This document shows, one piece after another, positions 34,218-46,726 of a stretch of DNA of 64,000 nucleotides. The stretch lies in the NCBI RefSeq assembly GCF_001894745.1, contig NZ_BBYF01000005.1, forward strand, positions 62,001-126,000. Direction: 5' to 3'. Source of the DNA: Paenibacillus sp. NAIST15-1 (GTDB taxonomy: Bacteria; Bacillota; Bacilli; Paenibacillales; Paenibacillaceae). The translations under genes were made by a program, and so were the position numbers. The notes beneath the pieces are model-generated. The model was not told the DNA's origin, did no database searches, and saw only the letters and a list, made by a program, of their open reading frames with translations. Positions within the stretch are counted from its first letter, which is position 1. Each line of letters starts with the position of its first letter.

Positions 34218-35111
34218 TTGAATTTGTTGGATCGCGATGGACTTACGGAACGTGAATTTTTAGAGCAGTACCGTGCCGGGGATTACGAACGGCCTTCGGT
34301 GGCGGCGGACGTGGTTATTTTCACAGTTACGAAAACGGAGGTGGACAGCTACCGCAAACTTCCGGAAAAAGAGCTGCGTATATTGCTCATTCGACGCGGA
34401 GGTCATCCATTCTTGGGCAGTTGGGCGCTTCCGGGCGGATTCGTCCGGCCGAATGAGACGACGGAGCAGGCGGCGGTGAGGGAGCTGCGCGAGGAAACCG
34501 GTGTGGATGACATATATTTGGAGCAGTTGTACACCTTCAGCGATGTTGGAAGGGATCCGCGCACCTGGGTGATGAGCTGCAGCTACATGGCCTTAATTAA
34601 CAGCGATCAGGTACAGCTGAAAGCAGGGGATGACGCTGTCGGCGCAGCCTGGTTCAAGGCAACCTATCGGCTTCTACGTGAGCGTAGAGAGTTTATTGAG
34701 GATGGGTTTGTGAAAACGATGGAAAACGAGCTCAAGCTAAGCAGCGAAGAGGAAGAGCTTACGGCAGTTGTGGAATGGACGATGACGTCAAAGCCGGCCT
34801 CGACGTCGACCTCCTACTCCATCGTATCAAATCACGGATTGGCTTTTGATCATGCGAAGATTATCGCCTGCGCTATTGAGCGACTGCGGGGGAAAGTGAA
34901 TTATACCGGCATTGCGCTGCACTTGATGCCGCACCTCTTTACTTTGACGGAGCTGCAGCAGGTTTACGAGGTGATCTTGGACAAAGAATTATTAAAAGCC
35001 GCCTTCCGGCGTAAAGTGGCGCATCTTGTAGCGGAGACCGATCATTATACTGAAAATGCGGGACACCGTCCCTCCCGCTTGTTTCGAAGAAATTTGGAGG
35101 AATATCGATGA
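34218..35111 (+). CDS. NUDIX hydrolase with C-terminal winged helix (NrtR-like)
   Basis: 297 residues starting at TTG, with GGAGGTAAGG upstream. The NUDIX box is GGFVRPNETTEQAAVRELREETGV (about 75-97). The C-terminal third (NYTGIALHLMPHLFTLTELQQVYEVILDKELLKAAFRRKV) is the winged helix found in NrtR-type regulators and in related ADP-ribose hydrolases, with the typical F-T-L-x-x-L-Q-x-x-Y-E motif. The NUDIX part either cleaves ADP-ribose or only senses it. The next gene (NADAR) overlaps by 4 bp, so this is the first gene of an ADP-ribose-related operon and may also regulate it. Confidence 0.9.
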   Translation: MNLLDRDGLTEREFLEQYRAGDYERPSVAADVVIFTVTKTEVDSYRKLPEKELRILLIRRGGHPFLGSWALPGGFVRPNETTEQAAVRELREETGVDDIYLEQLYTFSDVGRDPRTWVMSCSYMALINSDQVQLKAGDDAVGAAWFKATYRLLRERREFIEDGFVKTMENELKLSSEEEELTAVVEWTMTSKPASTSTSYSIVSNHGLAFDHAKIIACAIERLRGKVNYTGIALHLMPHLFTLTELQQVYEVILDKELLKAAFRRKVAHLVAETDHYTENAGHRPSRLFRRNLEEYR

Positions 35112-35665
35112 TGATGATATACAATATCGAGCAGTTAAGAAAAGCATATATTGCAGGTAAAACGTTCAAGTTTGTCTTCTTCTGGGGCCATACACCGCCA
35201 AAATACGGTGGGGTTGACAAAAGCTGTTTTAGCCAATGGTGGATGAGCCCTTTCGTGGTAGAGGGACACGAGTATTCCTGTGTCGAGCAGTTTATGATGT
35301 CCGAGAAAGCAAGACTTTTTGGAGATGGCGAAATGTTGGACGCGATTCTTAAAGCTAAGCATCCTAAGGAGATGAAAGCCTACGGGCGTGCAGTTGGAAA
35401 CTTCGACAAGGACATTTGGGACAACGAATGCTATGGCATCGTTAAAAGAGGCAATTTGGCTAAATTTTCGCAGAATCCGAAGCTTGGCGAATATCTTAAG
35501 TCAACGAAAAACCGTATTCTCGTCGAAGCCAGCCCACGGGATCGCATTTGGGGAATCGGCATGGGACAGTCCAATCCGGATGTGGAGAATCCACTAAAAT
35601 GGCGTGGTAAGAACCTACTCGGATTTGTGCTGACCGAAGTGAGAGACGAATTACTGCGAGATTAA
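35108..35665 (+). CDS. NADAR family protein (YbiA-like)
   Basis: 185 residues. Landmarks of the NADAR fold are FFWGHTPPK, CFSQWWMSPFVVEGHEYSCVEQFMMSEKARLFGD, then KAYGRAVGNFDKDIWD and the C-terminal DRIWGIGMGQSNPDVENPLKWRGKNLLGFVL. NADAR proteins act on ADP-ribose linked compounds; some reverse ADP-ribosylation of guanine in DNA, others (YbiA type) act on riboflavin intermediates. The ATG overlaps the NUDIX stop and a PARG-like gene follows, so an ADP-ribose substrate fits the context best. Confidence 0.92.
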   Translation: MMMIYNIEQLRKAYIAGKTFKFVFFWGHTPPKYGGVDKSCFSQWWMSPFVVEGHEYSCVEQFMMSEKARLFGDGEMLDAILKAKHPKEMKAYGRAVGNFDKDIWDNECYGIVKRGNLAKFSQNPKLGEYLKSTKNRILVEASPRDRIWGIGMGQSNPDVENPLKWRGKNLLGFVLTEVRDELLRD

Positions 35666-35706
35666 CATCTACCGGATTTGTTATTGATGAAAGAAGAGGG
35701 AATGAA

Positions 35707-36543
35707 ATGAAACGAAAAGAAATTGCTGAGGAAACATTACGAATACAGCGGCAAGGCTTCTATGAATATAAGGGGCGGCGGGTAGAATTCGCCACTGCAC
35801 AAAAGCAATCCGAGGCAAATAGCGAGCTGATTACACCGGAACTGGGAGAGAAACTGGTTCGGGGAATTGACGAGTTGCCTAAGTTGCCGCAAGAACCCGT
35901 TTATTCTGTCGCCAACGAGACCACAGTAAAGTCGATCTTGGATTTTGCGGAGCTAGGGAAAGGGCGCGCCGGCGTGTTAAACTTTGCTAGCGCAAAAAAT
36001 CCCGGAGGTGGATTTTTAAACGGGGCGATGGCTCAGGAGGAAAGCCTGGCGGCCTCCAGCGGATTATATGAAACACAGCTGCGCAATGAACGTTATTATA
36101 AGGCTAATCGGGCCTGCAAATCGATGATGTATACGAATCACGCTATCTATTCCCCGGACGTAGTGTTTTTCCGTAACCAGCGGTTTGATCTTATAGAGCG
36201 GCCGGTGACAGCTTCAGTATTGACTCTGCCCGCCGTGAATTATGGGCAGGTTCTGCTTAAGGGAGAGGATCCCCGGAAAGCGGAATGTATGATGAAAGAC
36301 AGGATGCGACTGGCCTTAGCCATATTCGCCCAAAAAGGCGATAAAAACCTCATTTTGGGTGCCTATGGCTGCGGTGTTTTCCGGAATGACCCGGTGAAGG
36401 TAGCAGGATGGTGGCGGGAGCTGCTGAAGGATGAAGGCTTAGGATACCTATTTTCGGAAATTCGTTTTGCAGTCTTGGACACTTCCAAAGAGGGCAAGTG
36501 CATTCATGCTTTTGAAAAGGAGTTCAATGGGAACAGAGGGTGA
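35707..36543 (+). CDS. TIGR02452 (PARG-like macrodomain) protein
   Basis: 278 residues. The macrodomain-type ADP-ribose loop is VLNFASAKNPGGGFLNGAMAQEESLAASSGLY: N-P-G-G-G followed by Q-E-E is the catalytic signature of bacterial poly(ADP-ribose) glycohydrolases. TLPAVNYGQV and ILGAYGCGVFRNDPVKVA follow as expected. It probably removes ADP-ribose from proteins or nucleic acid. AGAAGAGGGAATGAA precedes the ATG, and the gene lies 41 bp after NADAR and 6 bp before the next gene, so all four form one operon. Confidence 0.93.
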   Translation: MKRKEIAEETLRIQRQGFYEYKGRRVEFATAQKQSEANSELITPELGEKLVRGIDELPKLPQEPVYSVANETTVKSILDFAELGKGRAGVLNFASAKNPGGGFLNGAMAQEESLAASSGLYETQLRNERYYKANRACKSMMYTNHAIYSPDVVFFRNQRFDLIERPVTASVLTLPAVNYGQVLLKGEDPRKAECMMKDRMRLALAIFAQKGDKNLILGAYGCGVFRNDPVKVAGWWRELLKDEGLGYLFSEIRFAVLDTSKEGKCIHAFEKEFNGNRG

Positions 36544-36549
36544 ATCAAA

Positions 36550-37035
36550 ATGAGCTTTATGGATGCTTTGGAGCAAATAATAGCTGAGCAGGAGCAAGAA
36601 CGCGACCGTCTTCGAGTTAATCAAATCACCGTACGGGCCGACTATAAGAAAAAGAGTAAAAGCAATGTTTATCAAAAGGAAAAAGTTATTGAATATGGCT
36701 TTGTAGAACGTGATTTGGATGATGAGAATTTATATGGCAGGTTTGAGCTCTATTTCGCCGATCGCGACACTCTTCTCCAGGATAATCGGTTTGGAGATGA
36801 AACTGCTTTTGGTGAGCTTACAGATGTACATGCAGTTGCAACGGCAATCTTCCCCTATTTAGCAGAGCATTATCCCCGTTTTTTGGAGGAAACACCCTTT
36901 GCTATCAGCTATAACCCTATTGCAGAAGCTTGGATTATCGAGGGAACTCTTCCTCCGGGATCTTTTGGCGGTGTCATTTATATTGCTCTTGCAAAAGAAA
37001 ATGGGAGGATGCTCATGATGTATGCAACAAGATAA
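36550..37035 (+). CDS. NTF2-fold-like protein of unknown function
   Basis: 161 residues. An N-terminal charged helix (MDALEQIIAEQEQERDRLRVN) is followed by mixed sequence ending in PFAISYNPIAEAWIIEGTLPPGSFGGVIYIALAKENGRMLMMYATR. This end (a W, then G-T-L-P, G-G-V, a conserved dipeptide repeat and K-x-x-G-R-x-L) resembles NTF2-fold immunity proteins of polymorphic toxin systems. It follows the PARG-like gene by 6 bp. A link to ADP-ribosylating toxins is possible but rests on this partial resemblance. Confidence 0.6.
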   Translation: MSFMDALEQIIAEQEQERDRLRVNQITVRADYKKKSKSNVYQKEKVIEYGFVERDLDDENLYGRFELYFADRDTLLQDNRFGDETAFGELTDVHAVATAIFPYLAEHYPRFLEETPFAISYNPIAEAWIIEGTLPPGSFGGVIYIALAKENGRMLMMYATR

Positions 37036-37274: not shown

Positions 37275-38120
37275 ATGTCCGAATGTAAACTATCTGTCGA
37301 TTATGATCAATACGAGGAAGGTGTCAAAATCGTAGATTTAATAGAGGAGCTTGCAGGCAAGGATGAGAGCTTGCAGCTTGAAAGTCTCATAATCGGTGAC
37401 TGGGGCGGCGCCTATGAGGATGATTCCAGTGTAGTTGTCGAAGCTCTTGTTCGGTTAAAAGACCGCTTTCCGCAGCTGCGGAGCTTATTTATTGGCGATA
37501 TGTCCTCTGAAGAATGTGAGGTCTCTTGGATCAATCAATCTAATTTAGGGCCGATTTTATCTGCTTATCCTGAGCTTCGCTCACTCACCATTAAAGGGAG
37601 CACAGATCTTAGTCTTGTTCCGGCTCGCCATGACAAACTAGAGGAGCTTACTATTATTTGCGGCGGGCTTGGAACAGACGTCATTACTAGCATAAGTGAA
37701 GGCAGTTTCAAAAATTTGAAGAAGCTGGAGCTTTATTTAGGGGTAGAGGAGTATGGATTTGACGGAAGTCTCGCGGATGTGCTCCAGTTGATTGAACCTG
37801 GAAAATTCCCTCTGCTTTCCTATCTTGGGCTCAAAGACAGTGAAATTCAAGACGAAATCGCTATTGCAGTAGCCGATGCACCGATTCTTGATCAACTACA
37901 TACGTTGGATCTTTCTATGGGGACGTTGACAGATAAGGGAGCGGAAGCTCTTATCAATAGTGAAAAGATAATGAAACTGAAGTCGCTTGATTTAAGCTAT
38001 CATTACATGTCGGATGAAATGATGAATCGTTGGAAGCAGTCAGGCCTCAATGTAGATATCAGCGATCAACAGGATGCTGATGAAGACGAGGATTATCGCT
38101 ATCCTTCATTGACGGAATAA
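37275..38120 (+). CDS. STM4015-family leucine-rich-repeat protein
   Basis: 281 residues. CAGGAGG lies 6 nt before the ATG. An N-terminal segment KLSVDYDQYEEGVKIVDLIEELAGK precedes irregular LRR units (LRSLFIGDM, LRSLTIKGST, LEELTIICGG, LKKLELYLG, LSYLGLKDS, LHTLDLSMG, LKSLDLSYH). It ends with an acidic tail DADEDEDYRYPSLTE, conserved in the STM4015 family. Other members carry about 30 extra residues upstream; here a frame at 37175-37230 encodes IYGLETFDTYK, so the N-terminus may have been lost by a frameshift. It opens the STM4015-4011 cassette; its role, perhaps as a scaffold or substrate, is unknown. Confidence 0.85.
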   Translation: MSECKLSVDYDQYEEGVKIVDLIEELAGKDESLQLESLIIGDWGGAYEDDSSVVVEALVRLKDRFPQLRSLFIGDMSSEECEVSWINQSNLGPILSAYPELRSLTIKGSTDLSLVPARHDKLEELTIICGGLGTDVITSISEGSFKNLKKLELYLGVEEYGFDGSLADVLQLIEPGKFPLLSYLGLKDSEIQDEIAIAVADAPILDQLHTLDLSMGTLTDKGAEALINSEKIMKLKSLDLSYHYMSDEMMNRWKQSGLNVDISDQQDADEDEDYRYPSLTE

Positions 38121-38122
38121 CG

Positions 38123-39340
38123 ATGAAATCGATGATTATCATTGGCAATTCCGGCAATAGAAGAACAACCGGACTACAAGCAGCAAGAACTCGGCTGGGG
38201 TTGCCCCCAGCTCTTGTTTTGAATTATTTAGATGTGTTGCAGGGAAATGTATCCTTGAGTTCGGTTGCACATAGCTTGAGGCTAACGTTTGATGAACCTC
38301 CATTGCTGCGGCTTGACGCGCCCGGGGAACATTTTGAAGTGGAACGTGAGCTTATTGCACTTGGCGCCCCTGATTCGGCCAACACCCATATAGACGAGCG
38401 ATGGCTTAGATATAACAAGTGCGTTGTTCAGCCTATCTCGGTAAGGATGGCCAAAGGGTTGGAGGAAAATAAGGGAGAGCTATATCATCCTTCCCAGTGG
38501 TTTCGTGGGTATTGCAAGCTGTTATCTCAACTGGACAGGGAGGCAGCACAGCTGTGGAATACGCCACGTTGGATGAATGCTCCCGAGGATATAGCCGCAA
38601 TGTTCGATAAAAGGTATACTCACCAGATCTTATCATCGGCTGGATTACCGGTACCAAGAAGATTAGCTGCACCGGAAGACATACCGGATTACAATACACT
38701 TCGGGATGTTATGGCAAAAGAGCGGATATATCGTTTATTTATTAAGCTAGCAACGGGTTCCGGCGCATGTGGTGTAATCGCGTATCAGGTAAACCCCATT
38801 ACAGGTGCAGAGTCGGCCGTGACTACGATAGGTGTGGAGAACTATCTACGTAGACCTCCTATATTTTATAACGTAAAAAAGCTGGTGAACTATAAAGAAC
38901 GCCAAGTCATTCGCCAAATCATCAACTGGTTATTGGGACATGGAGCTCATGTAGAGCAATGGATTCCAAAAGCGTCTTATCGGGATCGCACCTTTGATAT
39001 CCGGCAACTTGTCGTAGCAGGTAAAGCGTGTCACAGTATTGTAAGGGTAAGCAGAACACCTATAACGAATCTGCATCTTGATAGTGATCGAATGAGCTTG
39101 GATGAAATCGGCTTGTCTGACAATCTTCAAGCTGCCGTGCGACAATGCGCTGAACAAACGTTAGCGGTATTTCCACGATCAACCGTCGCAGGCATAGATG
39201 TGTTATTGAGCAGCGGTTCCTATAGACCTTATGTATTGGATGTTAATCCGTTCGGAGATTTACTGTACCATAGTCATTATGAAGGACATGATCCCTATGA
39301 ATGGGAAATGAGAATGGCTACACTCTCTACGACTATCTAA
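38123..39340 (+). CDS. STM4014-family ATP-grasp protein
   Basis: 405 residues beginning 3 nt after the STM4015 stop. The central and C-terminal parts carry ATP-grasp features: IYRLFIKLATGSGACGVIAYQV (ATP lysine strand and glycine loop), VEQWIPKASYRDRTFDIRQLVV and the metal-binding end VAGIDVLLSSGSYRPYVLDVNPFGD. Such enzymes join a carboxylate to an amine or thiol with ATP. The partner is not known. It probably attaches an amino group within whatever the cassette makes or modifies. Confidence 0.87.
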   Translation: MKSMIIIGNSGNRRTTGLQAARTRLGLPPALVLNYLDVLQGNVSLSSVAHSLRLTFDEPPLLRLDAPGEHFEVERELIALGAPDSANTHIDERWLRYNKCVVQPISVRMAKGLEENKGELYHPSQWFRGYCKLLSQLDREAAQLWNTPRWMNAPEDIAAMFDKRYTHQILSSAGLPVPRRLAAPEDIPDYNTLRDVMAKERIYRLFIKLATGSGACGVIAYQVNPITGAESAVTTIGVENYLRRPPIFYNVKKLVNYKERQVIRQIINWLLGHGAHVEQWIPKASYRDRTFDIRQLVVAGKACHSIVRVSRTPITNLHLDSDRMSLDEIGLSDNLQAAVRQCAEQTLAVFPRSTVAGIDVLLSSGSYRPYVLDVNPFGDLLYHSHYEGHDPYEWEMRMATLSTTI

Positions 39341-39360
39341 AATGGAAGAGGCTCACCACG

Positions 39361-40146
39361 ATGTTTAACATGAATGAAATTGTAGGCAGTCACGATATTC
39401 TCATGATTACGCTGGATACACTGCGATATGACGCCGCTGTGCTGGAGGAAGCAAACTGTCCGAATTTGTGCGCGAGCGGACATTGGGAAAAGCGACATAC
39501 TCCAGGCAGCTTCACTTATGCAGCTCATCATGCTTTCTTTGGCGGATTTCTGCCAACTCCGGCTACGACAAATAAGGCAGAGCATGTTCGATTGTTTCAT
39601 TCGAAAAATACGGGATTAAAGACACATCCGTATACATGGCAATTTGATACAACGGATATCGTATCTGGATTGCAAGCTGTGGGCTACCGTACGATTTGTA
39701 TAGGCGGAGTCATCTTCTTTACCAAAAAAGTTCCGCTAGCCAAAGTTCTTCCAAGCTATTTCCAAGAAAGCTATTGGCGGATGACCTTTGGGGTTACAAA
39801 TCAACGCTCGACAGAGCATCAGGTGAACCATGCCATCAAGCTCCTGCATAATTCGAATCAGACAGAACGACTGTTTCTATTTATGAACGTATCAGCGATT
39901 CATGGGCCCAATCATTATTTTGTACCAGGAGCAAAGAAAGACTCATTAGAGACACAGCGCGCAGCACTTCGATATGTTGACGGTGAGCTTGGTCGATTAT
40001 TTCAGGCATTCAGAGAACGGGAACGGCCTGTATTTTGCATGGCGTTCTCTGATCATGGAACCGCCTTCGGTGAAGATGGCTACAACGGCCATAGGCTAGC
40101 GCATGAGGTCGTGTGGAACGTGCCTTATCGCGAATTTATTTTGTAA
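39361..40146 (+). CDS. STM4013/SEN3800-family hydrolase (alkaline phosphatase/sulfatase superfamily)
   Basis: 261 residues from the ATG at 39361, chosen for the GAAGAGG site; an in-frame start inside the previous gene would add 20 unconserved residues. The metal/nucleophile motif is MITLDTLRYDA and the distal motif is FSDHGTAFGEDGYNGHRLAHEVVWNVPYREF, with D-H-G and G-H as in phosphatases and sulfatases. A threonine takes the nucleophile position (TLDT), so phosphatase or phosphotransferase activity is at least as likely as sulfatase. It follows STM4014 by 20 bp. Confidence 0.88.
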   Translation: MFNMNEIVGSHDILMITLDTLRYDAAVLEEANCPNLCASGHWEKRHTPGSFTYAAHHAFFGGFLPTPATTNKAEHVRLFHSKNTGLKTHPYTWQFDTTDIVSGLQAVGYRTICIGGVIFFTKKVPLAKVLPSYFQESYWRMTFGVTNQRSTEHQVNHAIKLLHNSNQTERLFLFMNVSAIHGPNHYFVPGAKKDSLETQRAALRYVDGELGRLFQAFRERERPVFCMAFSDHGTAFGEDGYNGHRLAHEVVWNVPYREFIL

Positions 40147-40162
40147 GGTGAGAGGAGAGAAC

Positions 40163-41542
40163 ATGATGAGCCATACGGTCTACCCTAATTACACGGATAT
40201 CATCCAGAATTCGGAGGCTCTGCGCAGTTGGAAGGAAAACCTCACATCAGAGCCTTACCGATCATATCTATACGCTTATCCACACAAAACTTCCTATCGA
40301 GAATTGGAGAGGAAGCTGCCGCTTTCCGAACTGTGGAGCGAGGAAAAGGCAGATTCACTCTTTTTATATATGCATATCCCGTTTTGTGGAGCACGCTGCG
40401 GATTTTGCAATTTATTCACGTTGCCTGACAAGAGAGCCGACGTACATACCAATTATGTGGATGCATTGGAGAGACAAGCTGCACAATGGGCTCCACTTAT
40501 TCCGAATAAGCCGATTGCTAGATTTGCTATTGGAGGCGGTACGCCGACTTTACTCGAACCTGACCAGCTGGATCGGTTGTTTCATATTGCTCAACATGTG
40601 ATGGGCATGAATCCAGCCCAAGCTTCCATCTCGGTAGAAACATCTCCCGAGACGATAACCACCGAACGCTTGAATATTTTAAAAAGCAGGCAGGTGGATC
40701 GGGTCAGTATGGGGATTCAAAGCTTCGTAGAATTTGAAGCGGACGCGATCTATCGTCCCCAGAAGCCGCAGGAAGTCGAAAGAGCTCTGAGGCAGCTCAA
40801 GTTGTACCAATTTCCAATCCTAAATCTGGATTTGATTTATGGCCTTCCCGGTCAAACCCATGATTCATGGATATATTCGCTGGATAAGGCGTTGTCTTAC
40901 GACCCAGAGGAGTTATTTATTTATCCGCTATATACTCGCGAGCACACGATTGTAAAGCCAGAGCAGATAAGGCAGAGTGGCGAGGATCAGAGGGTAAGCT
41001 TCTATCGTGCAGCGCGGGATCGTTTGCTTGCACATGGATATACCCAGTACTCTATGCGCAGATTTGCCAAAGCAGATGCGATTTCGAAAAAATCATTGCT
41101 TCCGTATGGTTGTCAGGAGGAGGGCATGATTGGACTTGGCTGTGGCGCACGCTCTTACACAAGAGAGGTTCATTACTCCTCGCGATACAGTGTAGGTCGT
41201 TCAGCTACAGCAAGCATCATTGCCGACTACGTGGCTTCAGCCGACTACACCTATGCAGATTATGGCATTGTATTAAGCAAGGATGACCAGCAGCGACGCT
41301 TTATACTAAAAGCGCTGCTTCATACGGAAGGCTTGGCATTGAGCAGCTACGTGGAGCGGTTCGGAACGTCATCTCTCGTCGATTATCCCGAGTTGAATCT
41401 GCTTGTGCATACGGATCTTGCTGTTATCGAGCATGAGGTGCTTCGGCTGACGGATGAAGGGCTTATGTACTCCGATTCCATAGGAGATTGGTTCATTTCT
41501 CCGGATATTCGGGCACGTATGGAAAGCTGTGTACTATCATGA
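40163..41542 (+). CDS. STM4012-family radical SAM protein (HemW-like)
   Basis: 459 residues from the ATG at 40163 (GAGAGGAGAG upstream). The radical SAM cluster motif is HIPFCGARCGFCNL, with Cys at about 75, 79 and 82. IGGGTPTLL, SVETSPETI, SMGIQSF and DLIYGLPGQTHDSW are standard HemW/HemN landmarks, and a HemN-like C-terminal domain follows. HemW proteins bind heme; HemN oxidises coproporphyrinogen. This family differs enough that neither activity can be assigned. Its last bases overlap the start of STM4011 (ATGA). Confidence 0.93.
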   Translation: MMSHTVYPNYTDIIQNSEALRSWKENLTSEPYRSYLYAYPHKTSYRELERKLPLSELWSEEKADSLFLYMHIPFCGARCGFCNLFTLPDKRADVHTNYVDALERQAAQWAPLIPNKPIARFAIGGGTPTLLEPDQLDRLFHIAQHVMGMNPAQASISVETSPETITTERLNILKSRQVDRVSMGIQSFVEFEADAIYRPQKPQEVERALRQLKLYQFPILNLDLIYGLPGQTHDSWIYSLDKALSYDPEELFIYPLYTREHTIVKPEQIRQSGEDQRVSFYRAARDRLLAHGYTQYSMRRFAKADAISKKSLLPYGCQEEGMIGLGCGARSYTREVHYSSRYSVGRSATASIIADYVASADYTYADYGIVLSKDDQQRRFILKALLHTEGLALSSYVERFGTSSLVDYPELNLLVHTDLAVIEHEVLRLTDEGLMYSDSIGDWFISPDIRARMESCVLS

Positions 41543-42396
41543 AAGCGACGATTTATTTTCGCGGGAGCTTGAGCTCATGCAATTATGACTGCCCTTACTG
41601 TCCTTTTAGCAAGAACACGGATAGTCCAGAGACATTGGCGAAGGATCGGCTGCAAGTGCAGACATTTGTCGATTGGGTAACGAAGCAAGAAGGAAGCGGG
41701 CATCAGCTGTCCGTTTTTTTCAACCCATATGGTGAAGGGCTTACGCATAGTTGGTACAGGGAAGCGATGGTTAAGCTGTCCCACATGCAGCACGTTCAAA
41801 AGGTCGCTATACAAACCAACTTATCCGCTAAGCTCGATTGGACGCGCGAGTTGAATCCGGTTACGGCTGCATTCTGGGTAACGTACCATCCTGGGCAGAC
41901 GAAGGAAGAACGTTTTTTACAGCAATGCGGCAAACTTTATGAACAAAAAATACCGTTCAGTGTAGGCTGTGTCGGTGTGAAGAGCGCGTTCAACTCCATT
42001 TCTTCATTAAGGAAGGTTCTGCCTGATGATGTTTATATGTGGGTGAACGCCTACAAAGATAAACCAGCATACTATTCTGCTGAGGATACAGCATTTTTGA
42101 CCGATATGGATCCCTATTTTATCCTTAATGCCAGGGATTACGACAGTATGGACAAGCCGTGCCGTGCCGGAAAAAATGTGTTTTATGTCCAAGGAGACGG
42201 GCGCGTAAAGCGTTGCTATAAGGATCGTCAAGTAATCGGAAATTTGTATAAAGATGGGCTTGATGGAATCTCTAAAGAACGCTCGTGTCGTATGAGGCAA
42301 TGTGATTGTTATATAGGCTATATCCATATGGAGGAGCAGTCGTTCGATTCTATTTACGGAGAACGTATACTCGAACGGATCGCAATATTATCATAA
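41539..42396 (+). CDS. STM4011-family radical SAM protein
   Basis: 285 residues from the ATG at 41539. The cluster motif is SLSSCNYDCPYCPFSK, with Cys at 14, 18 and 21 as expected for the first beta/alpha unit. VFFNPYGEGLTH and ILNARDYDSMDKPCRAGKNVFYVQGDGRVKRCYKDR follow; the last two C-x-n-C groups and C-R-M-R-Q-C-D-C near the end resemble a SPASM-like region that could hold extra iron-sulfur clusters. That would fit a peptide or protein substrate. Translation is coupled to STM4012 by the ATGA overlap. Confidence 0.92.
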   Translation: MKATIYFRGSLSSCNYDCPYCPFSKNTDSPETLAKDRLQVQTFVDWVTKQEGSGHQLSVFFNPYGEGLTHSWYREAMVKLSHMQHVQKVAIQTNLSAKLDWTRELNPVTAAFWVTYHPGQTKEERFLQQCGKLYEQKIPFSVGCVGVKSAFNSISSLRKVLPDDVYMWVNAYKDKPAYYSAEDTAFLTDMDPYFILNARDYDSMDKPCRAGKNVFYVQGDGRVKRCYKDRQVIGNLYKDGLDGISKERSCRMRQCDCYIGYIHMEEQSFDSIYGERILERIAILS

Positions 42397-42410
42397 AGGG
42401 GAACTATGCA

Positions 42411-42920
42411 TTGGTAGGAACGGCAATATGGTTAACAGGAATTCCAAGCTCCGGTAAAACGACAACGGCGTTAGCTTTGTCAGCAGCTCTTCAAGAAAGA
42501 GGCGTTAGGGTCGAATGCTTGGACGGCGATGAACTTAGACAAATGGTAGGACGAGGGCTTGGATTCAGTAGAGAAGATCGAATGGAGAATATTCGCCGTG
42601 CCGTCTATATTAGCAAGCTGCTGAACCGCAATGGTGTTACGACGATCATTTCCATGATTGCACCCTATTTGGAAATGCGAGACTATGCGCGAGCAAAGCT
42701 GGAGCCATATGTTGAAGTGTATGTGCATTGTCCCTTAGAGGATTGTGTGCGCAGAGATGTGAAGGGCTTATATGCAAAAGCAATAAAAGGTGAGATAACA
42801 GCATTTACGGGTATTTCTGATGTCTATGAACCGCCGGTGCACCCAGAAATCACGATACATACGCACTTAAACAGTGTGGAGTCCAATGTGAGTCAAATTT
42901 TAGAGTACTTGATGAAATAA
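42411..42920 (+). CDS. cysC: Adenylylsulfate (APS) kinase homologue
   Basis: 169 residues from the TTG at 42411 (AAAGGGGAAC 9 nt upstream). The P-loop is GIPSSGKTT. The APS-binding region reads DGDELRQMVGRGLGFSREDRMENIRRA and the C-terminal segment FTGISDVYEPPVHPEI, both diagnostic of CysC. APS kinase makes PAPS from APS and ATP. No ATP sulfurylase or PAPS reductase lies nearby, so this copy probably supplies PAPS or phosphorylates another nucleotide for the STM40xx cassette it follows by 14 bp. The symbol marks the family, not a proven role. Confidence 0.88.
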   Translation: MVGTAIWLTGIPSSGKTTTALALSAALQERGVRVECLDGDELRQMVGRGLGFSREDRMENIRRAVYISKLLNRNGVTTIISMIAPYLEMRDYARAKLEPYVEVYVHCPLEDCVRRDVKGLYAKAIKGEITAFTGISDVYEPPVHPEITIHTHLNSVESNVSQILEYLMK

Positions 42921-42932
42921 TGAGAGGAGGGA

Positions 42933-43679
42933 ATGGCGTTGATTGAGCATAGCAATCTTGAAGAATATCAGGATCCCGTAAATTACGATCTTGAATTTGG
43001 CGGTGAAATGGACAAATATCAGTTCTTTCTTGAGCTTGCTAGATAGAGTCCTGGAGAAGTGTTAGAACTTGCTTGTGGTACAGGCTTAACAACGATCCCC
43101 CTGGCAAAAGCCGGCATAACGATGACTGGTGTAGATATCTCATCAGAGATGCTCGCATATGCGCGGTTGAAGGCGGAGGGGTTGCCTGTTACTTTTATGG
43201 AAGGCGATGCCCGTACTTTCGAATCGGACAAGCGATTTTCGATGATTTATTTGACTGGCAATGCATTTCAGGCATTCTTACGTGAGCAAGATCAGATCGA
43301 TTTGCTCACGACCGTTCACAAACATTTACAACCCCACGGAATCTTTGCATTTGAGACTCGTAATCCGGAGGGAACGGATTTATCCGATGAAGAGGAAACA
43401 GAATGGGGATCATTTATTGATAAGGATGGAAATACTGTCAAGGTGTCTGGCACACAACGTTACGATGCTAGCCAGCAAATCATGCATTGGGTCACGATGC
43501 GTGATTGGGGGGATAAGCGAACGACTTCCCGAATTGCTTGTCGGTTCACGGATCAGAATACGCTGCATACTTTATTAACTCGTCACGGCTTTCGCGTGGA
43601 ACATCAATATGCTGACTGGGATAAAACGCCGTTCTCTCCGTTATCTCCATCGATCATTAGCGTTTGTAGGAAAGATTAG
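42933..43679 (+). pseudogene. Class I SAM-dependent methyltransferase with an in-frame stop
   Basis: The gene starts at 42933 behind GAGAGGAGGGA and encodes 37 residues (MALIEHSNLEEYQDPVNYDL ... FFLELAR), then a TAG at 43044-43046, after which the same frame continues SPGEVLELACGTGLTTIPLAKAG. The SAM-binding motif I is ELACGTG and motif II GVDISSEMLAYAR. Without the stop the protein would have 248 residues. CAG to TAG is a one-base change. Restart at the GTG at 43059 would give 206 residues lacking the N-terminal helix. It follows the APS kinase by 12 bp, so it probably belongs to the same operon. Confidence 0.85.
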
Positions 43680-44503: not shown

Positions 44504-44690
44504 AAACGCGTACTGATTGTAGCATCAATAATTATAGGTAGTAGGTAAAAATACTGGGCTGATTTGCAAATCCATTTATAAACACTTACATGATCAAATG
44601 ATGATGCAGAAACAAAAAAATTGTGACAGATAAACTAGGCTTATTGAAGGATTTGACGCTAGAAAATAGGTATGCAATTATCATTGCAAA

Positions 44691-44705
44691 TGATAATCAA
44701 TATCA
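44691..44705. promoter_or_regulatory. Fur box before the AraC gene
   Basis: TGATAATCAATATCA matches the 7-1-7 Fur consensus TGATAATNATTATCA at all but one position. A second overlapping palindrome ATTATCATT-GCA-AATGATAAT (44678-44698) extends it. It sits over a possible -10 (TATATT, 44706 onward) and about 60 bp before the GTG start. Confidence 0.85.
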
Positions 44706-44764
44706 TATATTATGGGGGTATAAATCTTTCAACACAGAGTGAAAGTGAAGGGGAGAGCAAGACG

Positions 44765-46726
44765 GTGAAATTGAATGAGCAAGCTTTACTATGGAACCAA
44801 GCATTCATCAAGATTATAGATGTACGGCATACAATAATGAAGCAAGGCGAGGAGTTGCATGCGTACAGAATGCCCTCAAGCGCCTTCTTATATGTAATTA
44901 GAGGCAGCGCACAGCTCCAGCTGGACGGCATTGCACACCACGTCAGCCGGTTTTCCTTGATCCATGGAGGCAAGGGAGTCTATCTTGATATTACTGCGGA
45001 TGAGCTCCTGGACTATTATATGATTTTATATAAAGCGGTGCTGGCGCTGCCAGCCCGTCAAGAAACGGTCAAGTTGATAGAGGATCACAATCCGTTTCAA
45101 ATGCAATATGTGTTCAAGCCTCATTACCCGATCTCCGTCTTCCATCATGTCACCGCCATGAGCAAGGAGTGGCATCATTCGGATTTCATAGAGAAACTTC
45201 ATGTTAAAGCGATATTTTATCAAATGGTCTATGAAATACTAGAGCAAATGGAACGACAGAATGTCATAGCCGTCAAGCCTGACCTCGTGGCCCAAGCGGT
45301 ACGCTATATTCATGAGCGCTATCAGGAGCCGATTACGCTCGAGACGCTGCTTGAACACCTTGATTGCAGCTCCAGACAGCTGCTGCGCGTCTTCAAGAAG
45401 CAAGTTAGAACAAGCCCGATCGATTATTTGATTCAATTACGGATGAGCAAGGCGAAGCAGTTACTTCTTTCCACAGATTTCACCTTGAAGGAAATTGCGG
45501 AGAGCGTAGGTTATACCGACAGCTATTATTTTAGCCGTATCTTCAAGAAATACGAAGGTGCTTCTCCTACTAGCTTTAAAGAAGCTGCATTGCAGCAGGA
45601 GCAGCGTCGAAATAATCCATCCGTCGTGTCCAGATATCCCATTGCTGCTAAAAGACAGCAACGTTATATTGATAATGATTATGAGAATCATTATCATAAA
45701 AAGAGAGAAGGGGTATTACCGATGTATCGAAAGTCGAGAACAGCAATGGCAGCAACCTTATTATTTTGTTTCACCCTCTTGTTGAGCGCATGCACAACAG
45801 GAGGAACGAACGCCACATCGGCAAACAGTGGCTCGCCCAGTAATAACGTAGCAGCTTCCACAAGTCCGGCTGCAAGCAATGAGACAAGAGTAATTAAGCA
45901 TGCGATGGGGGAAGAAACACTCAGCGGTACCCCTGAACGTATTGTTATATTGACCAATGAAGGAACGGAGGCGCTGTTGGCAGTTGGCATTAAACCAGTC
46001 GGAGCCGTTCAGTCTTGGATTGGCGATCCTTGGTACGACCATATCAAGCAAGAGATGGAAGGGGTCACCGTTGTCGGAGACGAGCTGCAGCCGAATCTTG
46101 AATTGATCGCGAGCCTCAAGCCGGATCTGATTATCGGCAATAAGGTCAGACAAGAGAAAATTTACGACCAATTAAAGCAAATTGCTCCCACGATATTCTC
46201 CGAAGATCTGGCGGGAGATTGGAAAATCAATTTCAAGCTCTACTCCGAAGCTTTAAACAAGCAGGCAGAAGGAGAGCAAAAGATGGCGGCCTTTGACAAA
46301 CGTGTCGAGGAAGTCAAGGCAAAACTGGGCAGCAAAGCGGAAACGAAAGTATCAGTGGCCCGCTTCTCTGCCAAACAAGTTCGTATCTATCAGAAGCAAA
46401 CGTTCTCCGGTGTGCTATTGAGCCAATTAGGTATTGCCCGCCCAGAATCGCAGGATAAAGACTCCTTTATGGAGGTTATGTCCAAGGAAACGATACCTAG
46501 CATGGACGGCGATGTGCTCTTCTACTTCGTATCGGAGGTTCCGGGCAAGAACGATGCGGCGAAGGTGGTAGAGGAATGGAAAAAAGATCCGCTGTTCCAG
46601 AACTTGAGTGTTACCAAGAACAACAAAATTATTCAAGTCGATGAAGCCATATGGAACTCAGCAGGCGGATATGAAGCGGCCAATCTGCTGCTGGATGAAC
46701 TTGTTAAGTACTTTGATGTAAAGTAA
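44765..46726 (+). CDS. AraC-family regulator reading in frame into a siderophore-binding lipoprotein
   Basis: A single frame of 653 residues from the GTG at 44765 (AAGGGGAGAG 9 nt upstream). Residues 1-130 form a cupin-like AraC N-terminal domain, and about 185-285 contain two helix-turn-helix units (TLETLLEHLDCSSRQLLRVFKKQV; TLKEIAESVGYTDSYYFSRIFKKYEGASPTSF). After about residue 300 the frame passes without a stop through Fur-box DNA (translated IDNDYENHYHKKREG) into a complete lipoprotein that has its own start (45722). A cytoplasmic regulator with an internal lipoprotein signal makes little sense, so either two products are made or the AraC stop codon has been lost. Iron-siderophore response is the likely role. 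Confidence 0.8.
   Translation: MKLNEQALLWNQAFIKIIDVRHTIMKQGEELHAYRMPSSAFLYVIRGSAQLQLDGIAHHVSRFSLIHGGKGVYLDITADELLDYYMILYKAVLALPARQETVKLIEDHNPFQMQYVFKPHYPISVFHHVTAMSKEWHHSDFIEKLHVKAIFYQMVYEILEQMERQNVIAVKPDLVAQAVRYIHERYQEPITLETLLEHLDCSSRQLLRVFKKQVRTSPIDYLIQLRMSKAKQLLLSTDFTLKEIAESVGYTDSYYFSRIFKKYEGASPTSFKEAALQQEQRRNNPSVVSRYPIAAKRQQRYIDNDYENHYHKKREGVLPMYRKSRTAMAATLLFCFTLLLSACTTGGTNATSANSGSPSNNVAASTSPAASNETRVIKHAMGEETLSGTPERIVILTNEGTEALLAVGIKPVGAVQSWIGDPWYDHIKQEMEGVTVVGDELQPNLELIASLKPDLIIGNKVRQEKIYDQLKQIAPTIFSEDLAGDWKINFKLYSEALNKQAEGEQKMAAFDKRVEEVKAKLGSKAETKVSVARFSAKQVRIYQKQTFSGVLLSQLGIARPESQDKDSFMEVMSKETIPSMDGDVLFYFVSEVPGKNDAAKVVEEWKKDPLFQNLSVTKNNKIIQVDEAIWNSAGGYEAANLLLDELVKYFDVK
45670..45696. 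promoter_or_regulatory. Overlapping Fur boxes before the siderophore-binding protein
   Basis: TGATAATGATTATGA (45670-45684) and TGAGAATCATTATCA (45682-45696) match the Fur consensus at 13 and 14 of 15 positions. They overlap by three bases and lie 26 bp before the ATG at 45722, inside the coding frame of the AraC protein. Confidence 0.88.
45722..46726 (+). CDS. Iron-siderophore ABC transporter substrate-binding lipoprotein
   Basis: 334 residues from an internal ATG, supported by GAGAAGGGG 9 nt upstream, a full lipoprotein signal (MYRKSRTAMAATLLFCFTLL then LSAC, cysteine 24) and its own Fur boxes. The mature part is a class III binding protein (FhuD/FepB/BtuF type): TPERIVILTNEGTEALLAVGIKPVGAVQSW, LELIASLKPDLIIGNKVRQEKIYDQLKQIAPTI and YEAANLLLDELVKYF. 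It delivers a ferric siderophore to the FecCD permeases downstream. A stable hairpin separates it from them, which would favour higher expression of this protein. Confidence 0.9.
   Translation: MYRKSRTAMAATLLFCFTLLLSACTTGGTNATSANSGSPSNNVAASTSPAASNETRVIKHAMGEETLSGTPERIVILTNEGTEALLAVGIKPVGAVQSWIGDPWYDHIKQEMEGVTVVGDELQPNLELIASLKPDLIIGNKVRQEKIYDQLKQIAPTIFSEDLAGDWKINFKLYSEALNKQAEGEQKMAAFDKRVEEVKAKLGSKAETKVSVARFSAKQVRIYQKQTFSGVLLSQLGIARPESQDKDSFMEVMSKETIPSMDGDVLFYFVSEVPGKNDAAKVVEEWKKDPLFQNLSVTKNNKIIQVDEAIWNSAGGYEAANLLLDELVKYFDVK

What the first reader, a model, noticed from the sequence alone, without database searches (positions are those of the whole stretch)
37275..43679. Complete STM4015-4014-4013-4012-4011 cassette with an APS kinase and a methyltransferase
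Five families named only after Salmonella loci occur in fixed order: LRR protein, ATP-grasp, phosphatase/sulfatase-like hydrolase, HemW-like radical SAM and a second radical SAM with extra cysteines. An adenylylsulfate kinase and a SAM methyltransferase follow. The gene types are those of a biosynthetic or protein-modifying pathway, and I know of no described product. The LRR protein with its conserved D-E-D-Y-R-Y tail could be the modified substrate or a scaffold. The kinase suggests a sulfated or nucleotide-linked intermediate.
Basis: partly seen in the sequence, partly recalled or inferred. Interest (0 to 1): 0.85.

Follow-up and report, generated by a model that had tools for sequence, protein, structure and literature searches.

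The report
Glutamate-tailed LRR proteins with ligase cassette
A five-gene cassette found in bacteria of many phyla encodes a leucine-rich-repeat protein that nearly always ends in the amino acid glutamate, beside a ligase and two radical-SAM enzymes that are predicted to attach and remodel a small chemical group on that glutamate, which would be an undescribed kind of protein decoration.

Summary
In detail: all five genes are present, in order, each above its NCBIfam cut-off. The cassette is a real unit: 64 of 80 loci selected by STM4011 alone have the order 15-14-13-12-11, and in 197 Paenibacillaceae genomes four of the families occur together in the same 73.

New here: the LRR protein ends in glutamate in 129 of 135 STM4015 ORFs. 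Distantly related planctomycete WGR-LRR proteins in its place end so too, with another tail pattern (116 of 120 listed). STM4014 is nearest to RimK, LysX and ArgX:LysW, ligases that act on a protein's C-terminal glutamate. I infer that STM4014 loads the STM4015 tail and that the radical-SAM enzymes and STM4013 make or modify the loaded group. No chemistry was shown.

Corrections: the APS kinase follows only 7 of 13 complete relative cassettes; the methyltransferase is interrupted by a stop; the ADP-ribose genes are not linked in 15 relatives; STM4013 lacks the sulfatase maturation motif. Nine keyword searches of the paper library turned up no functional study.

The parts
37275..38120 (+). STM4015: LRR protein, proposed carrier/substrate
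   Evidence: NF038076 355.5 bits; AF2 model mean pLDDT 94, 81 over residues 271-280 and 59 at residue 281; matches solved structure 2ra8 at 37% identity
38073..38117 (+). C-terminal tail DADEDEDYRYPSLTE with the terminal Glu
   Evidence: 129 of 135 STM4015 ORFs end in E; 119 of the 120 listed homologues of 2263
38123..39340 (+). STM4014: ATP-grasp ligase nearest to RimK/LysX
   Evidence: NF038074 441.8 bits; LysX/RimK by profile and by fold
39361..40146 (+). STM4013: alkaline-phosphatase-superfamily hydrolase with Thr in the nucleophile position
   Evidence: NF038075 395.3 bits; D19, F51-T52, D231-H232, H248 invariant in the 14 sequences of A10; Thr aligned with sulfatase Cys and with the NPP Thr
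40163..41542 (+). STM4012: HemN-like radical SAM protein, CxxxCxxC
   Evidence: NF006067 596.6 bits; HemN 1olt and NocN 9p2u by profile
41539..42396 (+). STM4011: radical SAM protein with five further conserved Cys
   Evidence: NF038073 403.7 bits; SkfB 6efn by profile (E 1.6e-4); invariant Cys in A4
42411..42920 (+). APS-kinase-like protein, accessory gene
   Evidence: TIGR00455 195.7 bits; only PF01583 match in the genome; cassette-linked clade, support 95/92
42939..43679 (+). methyltransferase remnant, in-frame TAG at 43044-43046; not judged part of the cassette
   Evidence: a homologue lies 3-4 kb beyond the cassette in 2 of 15 relative loci

Best explanation
The LRR protein STM4015 likely serves as the carrier or substrate of a C-terminal modification: the ATP-grasp enzyme STM4014 is predicted to join an amino acid or amine to the conserved C-terminal glutamate, and the radical-SAM enzymes STM4012 and STM4011, with the phosphatase-like STM4013, would make or remodel the attached group. 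Shown: the cassette, its order and co-occurrence, the terminal Glu, and the similarity of STM4014 to RimK/LysX. Inferred: the ligation itself, the order of steps, and a phosphorylated intermediate, on which the APS-kinase-like protein (Paenibacillus) and a HAD phosphatase (Salmonella, Bacteroides) would act. Whether the finished group stays on the LRR protein (prosthetic group) or is cut off (small molecule) is open. I favour that it stays: no protease is among the five genes, tandem LRR copies share one enzyme set, and in planctomycetes the LRR/ligase pair has diverged more than STM4011-4013.
Confidence: 0.58

Rival explanations
1. The tail is the core of a graspetide-like or SPASM-type crosslink: STM4014 and STM4011 join side chains within the tail (for example an aromatic residue or Asp and the Glu), and nothing is added from outside.
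For: PsnB is Foldseek's first hit for STM4014; STM4011 matches SkfB, a sporulation-killing-factor maturase; aromatic residues precede the Glu in most tails; Asp at -3 is constant in the planctomycete tails (116 of 116 ending in E).
Against: In STM4015 tails no position but the Glu is invariant: -6 is Y/F in 90 of 98 distinct tails and S, N or M in the rest. Profile search and VIA-align put LysX/RimK first.
Confidence: 0.18
2. The LRR protein is a non-covalent scaffold or regulator that docks the enzymes by its tail; the enzymes make a free small molecule.
For: Conserved LRR body motifs; exact C-terminal motifs can be docking signals (general knowledge).
Against: The terminal Glu is kept across two tail patterns that otherwise differ, and the neighbouring ligase is nearest to enzymes that act on such a Glu.
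Confidence: 0.16
3. A haem- or porphyrin-handling system in which STM4012 is a HemW-like haem chaperone.
For: STM4012 matches HemW TIGR00539 (168.8 bits) and HemN 1olt; a hemN gene lies about 7 kb beyond the Salmonella cassette.
Against: The HemW score lies under its cut-off of 205.4; the ligase and Glu tail stay unexplained. Linkage to porphyrin genes was not searched for systematically.
Confidence: 0.05

Closest known systems
LysW / LysX-ArgX amino-group carrier protein system (3vpb, 3vpd, 5k2m)
   Same: ATP-grasp ligase of similar fold beside a protein with a C-terminal Glu after an acidic stretch (LysW tail EDWGE recalled)
   Different: Carrier is a 281-residue LRR protein, not a small zinc-binding LysW (recalled); two radical SAM enzymes and a phosphatase-like enzyme stand in place of the lysine/arginine enzymes
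RimK / ribosomal protein S6 (RpsF) C-terminal glutamylation
   Same: RimK-type fold; RimK adds Glu to the C-terminus of a protein (PMC10092738, passages seen)
   Different: Dedicated LRR protein encoded next door, with rSAM enzymes; STM4014 has 405 residues against about 290 and is under the rimK_fam cut-off (26.2 of 143.4)
Pearlins (TglA/TglB, PEARL enzymes)
   Same: Amino acid added to the C-terminus of a carrier, then remodelled by rSAM and other enzymes (PMC9303977, passages seen)
   Different: PEARL uses aminoacyl-tRNA, carrier peptides and a protease; here an ATP-grasp, a folded LRR protein and no protease in the five genes
Graspetides (PsnB)
   Same: ATP-grasp ligase acting on an encoded substrate; PsnB is Foldseek's first hit
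   Different: Graspetide precursors are short peptides with several core residues (recalled); here a folded protein with one constant terminal Glu

Membership tests
NCBIfam STM4011-STM4015 families | score over curated cut-off | tested here: met
   all five over cut-off
LysW amino-group carrier protein | C-terminal Glu at the exact end | tested here: met
   129 of 135 ORFs, and the window protein
LysW amino-group carrier protein | LysX/ArgX/RimK-type ATP-grasp partner | tested here: met
   nearest by profile (E 3e-5) and by fold, though under the curated RimK-type cut-offs listed
LysW amino-group carrier protein | small zinc-binding LysW body | tested here: not met
   LRR protein of 281 residues
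LysW amino-group carrier protein | isopeptide bond on the Glu gamma-carboxyl | not testable with these tools
   needs mass spectrometry
RimK (S6 glutamate ligase) | rimK_fam TIGR00768 cut-off | tested here: not met
   26.2 bits, cut-off 143.4
Type I sulfatase (formylglycine) | C/S-x-P-x-R maturation motif | tested here: not met
   Thr aligned with the Cys of CAPSR of 6hhm (weak alignment); Thr invariant in 14 sequences; motif recalled
Alkaline phosphatase superfamily | conserved Asp/His metal ligands and nucleophile | tested here: met
   D19, T52, D231, H232, H248 invariant in 14 sequences; Pfam Sulfatase 39.9 and Phosphodiest 28.9 bits, both over cut-off; residue roles from recall
HemW haem chaperone | TIGR00539 cut-off | tested here: not met
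   168.8 bits, cut-off 205.4
SPASM/twitch radical SAM | CxxxCxxC plus auxiliary-cluster Cys | tested here: met
   three plus five invariant Cys in the 10 sequences of A4; Pfam SPASM 20 bits, just under its cut-off of 21.5
APS kinase | TIGR00455 cut-off | tested here: met
   195.7 bits, cut-off 138.7; PAPS formation not testable here
Graspetide/RiPP precursor | short precursor peptide with leader and core | tested here: not met
   281-residue LRR protein, ordered model

The most novel reading that the evidence does not exclude
Bacteria of about ten phyla arm whole families of LRR proteins, sometimes in tandem arrays of up to six, with a radical-SAM-made prosthetic group hung on a C-terminal glutamate, so that one enzyme set turns many different LRR binding modules into chemically active effectors.
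Probability: 0.28. Interest if true: 0.93.

Novelty: new variant of a known kind. Interest (0 to 1): 0.77.

Why it matters
More than two thousand protein clusters each of STM4015 and STM4011 carry names that only recall Salmonella locus numbers. A constant C-terminal Glu beside a ligase nearest to LysX/RimK gives a concrete target: one residue to mutate and one mass to measure. If right, it extends C-terminal tethering from small carriers and peptides to folded repeat proteins, and gives a role to a planctomycete WGR-LRR family and to the uncharacterised structure 2ra8.

Tried and rejected
APS kinase as a core part: rejected, it follows 7 of 13 complete relative cassettes and forms its own clade there. 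Against this, 3 of the 80 distant loci (L040, L055, L086) also hold an APS-kinase homologue in the fetched stretch, L086's right behind STM4011 on the other strand; I did not test whether that exceeds chance. ADP-ribose genes as partners: rejected. Methyltransferase as a partner: rejected. Sulfatase reading of STM4013: rejected. Defence system: among the five cassette proteins PADLOC gave only one hit, for STM4012 (41.6 bits), with 27 bits for the APS kinase and 60 for the methyltransferase. Body against tail identity of tandem copies: not informative. DUF6745 plus a roughly 100-residue protein: both in 48 of 80 loci, always together, but not found in the Paenibacillus, Salmonella and Bacteroides plasmid loci, so accessory. 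Literature: nine keyword searches listed no paper whose title or abstract start tells a function of this cassette; two name single genes in tables (PMC2784778, PMC3844500; one passage each seen). In four others I saw passages only, none on this cassette (PMC4431377, PMC4275035, PMC8939145, PMC10434189). Passages of PMC9303977 and PMC10092738 served the comparison. The other listed papers I did not open. The 2009 amidoligase survey by Iyer et al. (PMC3268129) is not held and may mention such a neighbourhood.

Full report
Observation. NCBIfam places all five genes of window 37275-42396 in their named families, each over its curated cut-off, with small or overlapping gaps (2, 29 and 16 bases; STM4011 starts inside the end of STM4012). 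The APS-kinase gene follows at 42411. The methyltransferase is a remnant with an in-frame TAG at 43044.

A real unit. Mapping the other four families in those 80 loci gave the complete order 15-14-13-12-11 in 64. Eight have little sequence upstream of STM4011; of these L082 has the order 12-11-15-14-13 and L095 has STM4015 directly before STM4011. Eight others differ: three planctomycetes (L027, L034, L037), L036 (12-11 only), L040 (13-12-11 with an LRR protein 7 kb on), L078 (14-15-13-12-11), L085 (12-11-15-14-13), and L093, whose STM4011 was not found as a closed ORF at the contig end. Record titles and annotated plasmids cover Bacillota, Pseudomonadota, Actinomycetota, Deinococcota, Bacteroidota, Planctomycetota, Chloroflexota, Acidobacteriota, Myxococcota and cyanobacteria with relatives (phylum placement partly recalled). 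In 197 Paenibacillaceae genomes, STM4011, STM4013 and STM4014 are each over the cut-off in 73 and STM4015 in 74; 73 genomes have all four, and the odd one (G015) holds a broken cassette. STM4012 was not in that survey.

The tail. Of 135 STM4015 ORFs over 60 bits (three duplicate loci removed), 129 end in Glu and 125 end [VIL][SGAT]E; 10 of 6132 other mechanical ORFs of 80 residues or more end so. The profile was built on full-length proteins, tail included. The six misses are four fragments or overruns (L016, L017, second ORFs in L056 and L089) and the first copies in L032 and L035. The set is redundant: 95 distinct ten-residue tails, 89 of them with Glu. The usual form is acidic-R-Y-x-A-V-S-E; only the Glu is constant among the 129. 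STM4011, STM4013 and STM4014 end in varied residues, STM4012 in Arg in 33 of 62 distinct tails. Of the 120 listed homologues of the window protein (2263 hits), 119 end in Glu.

A second tail pattern. In the three planctomycete loci, one to four LRR proteins, most with a WGR domain, stand before an STM4014-like gene; all seven end in Glu, while a further weak LRR hit behind that gene in L027 does not. They are distant relatives of STM4015 (40-63 bits). Of the 120 listed relatives of one of them (842 hits), 116 end in Glu, as do all 110 of 464 residues or more, and the 116 share Asp at -3. As a control, one Gemmata genome has 14 TIGR02996 matches; of the nine whose ORF I read, only the cassette-linked protein ends in Glu; five were not assessed.

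The other enzymes. STM4012 has CxxxCxxC and resembles HemN and the methyltransferase NocN. STM4011 has CxxxCxxC and five more invariant Cys and resembles SkfB (E 1.6e-4); BtrN comes only at E 0.1. STM4013 aligns with sulfatases and nucleotide phosphodiesterases, with Thr where the former have Cys and the latter Thr. STM4015 matches 2ra8, an uncharacterised Bacteroides protein; the match ends ..YPMITE at residue 354 of 362, the rest presumably an expression tag.

Two modules. In planctomycetes STM4011, STM4012 and (two loci) STM4013 are as close to those of 16 chosen loci as these are to each other, while STM4014 is more distant and the LRR partner only weakly recognisable. I read this as a ligase/carrier pair and a group-making trio; three loci are a thin basis.

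Accessories. The kinase follows 7 of 13 complete relative cassettes (8 of 14 with the window), all in the window's genus, and forms its own clade among the kinases compared (95/92). Two relatives have broken cassettes: in G008 the kinase is broken too, and G015 has no APS-kinase match. Elsewhere a Cof-type HAD phosphatase follows (Salmonella) or is fused to STM4011 (Bacteroides). DUF6745 and a roughly 100-residue protein sit in 48 of 80 loci, always together; the small one ends in Asp in 52 of 52 hits. Phosphate chemistry on the attached group would explain the kinase and phosphatases; this is inference.

Conclusion. The best reading is a C-terminal-Glu ligation system with a folded LRR carrier: like LysW/LysX, RimK and pearlins in principle, a member of none by the tests run.

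Noticed in passing
34218-37035: NrtR-like Nudix regulator, NADAR protein, microbial PARG (TIGR02452) and an Imm-NTF2 protein in a row: an NAD/ADP-ribose cluster next to the cassette but not linked to it in 15 relatives.
   Followed up: partly
44672-46726: One 684-residue ORF joins an AraC-type regulator to a siderophore-binding-like domain, followed by two permease-like ORFs (named by eye, no family search).
   Followed up: no
L019, L020, L021, L026 and many actinobacterial loci: DUF6745 proteins mostly end in Thr (34 of 37 distinct tails) and the paired roughly 100-residue proteins end in Asp (52 of 52), so further protein families around this cassette have fixed C-termini.
   Followed up: partly
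L022:8965-10530: Bacteroides STM4011 is fused to a HAD phosphatase, and the locus shows no STM4012 and only a fragment of STM4013.
   Followed up: partly
L121: A relative (G008) holds fragments of the cassette and of the APS kinase together, as if lost as one unit.
   Followed up: no
L095: In the Hyella contig STM4015 stands directly before STM4011 without the other three genes between.
   Followed up: no
L023: The Salmonella cassette lies in a record labelled plasmid beside typA, glnA, glnL, glnG and hemN, a chromosome-like stretch.
   Followed up: no
L020:9897-10607: A TauE/SafE sulfite exporter gene overlaps the end of STM4011 in Streptomyces cadmiisoli, a second hint of sulfur besides the APS kinase.
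   Followed up: no
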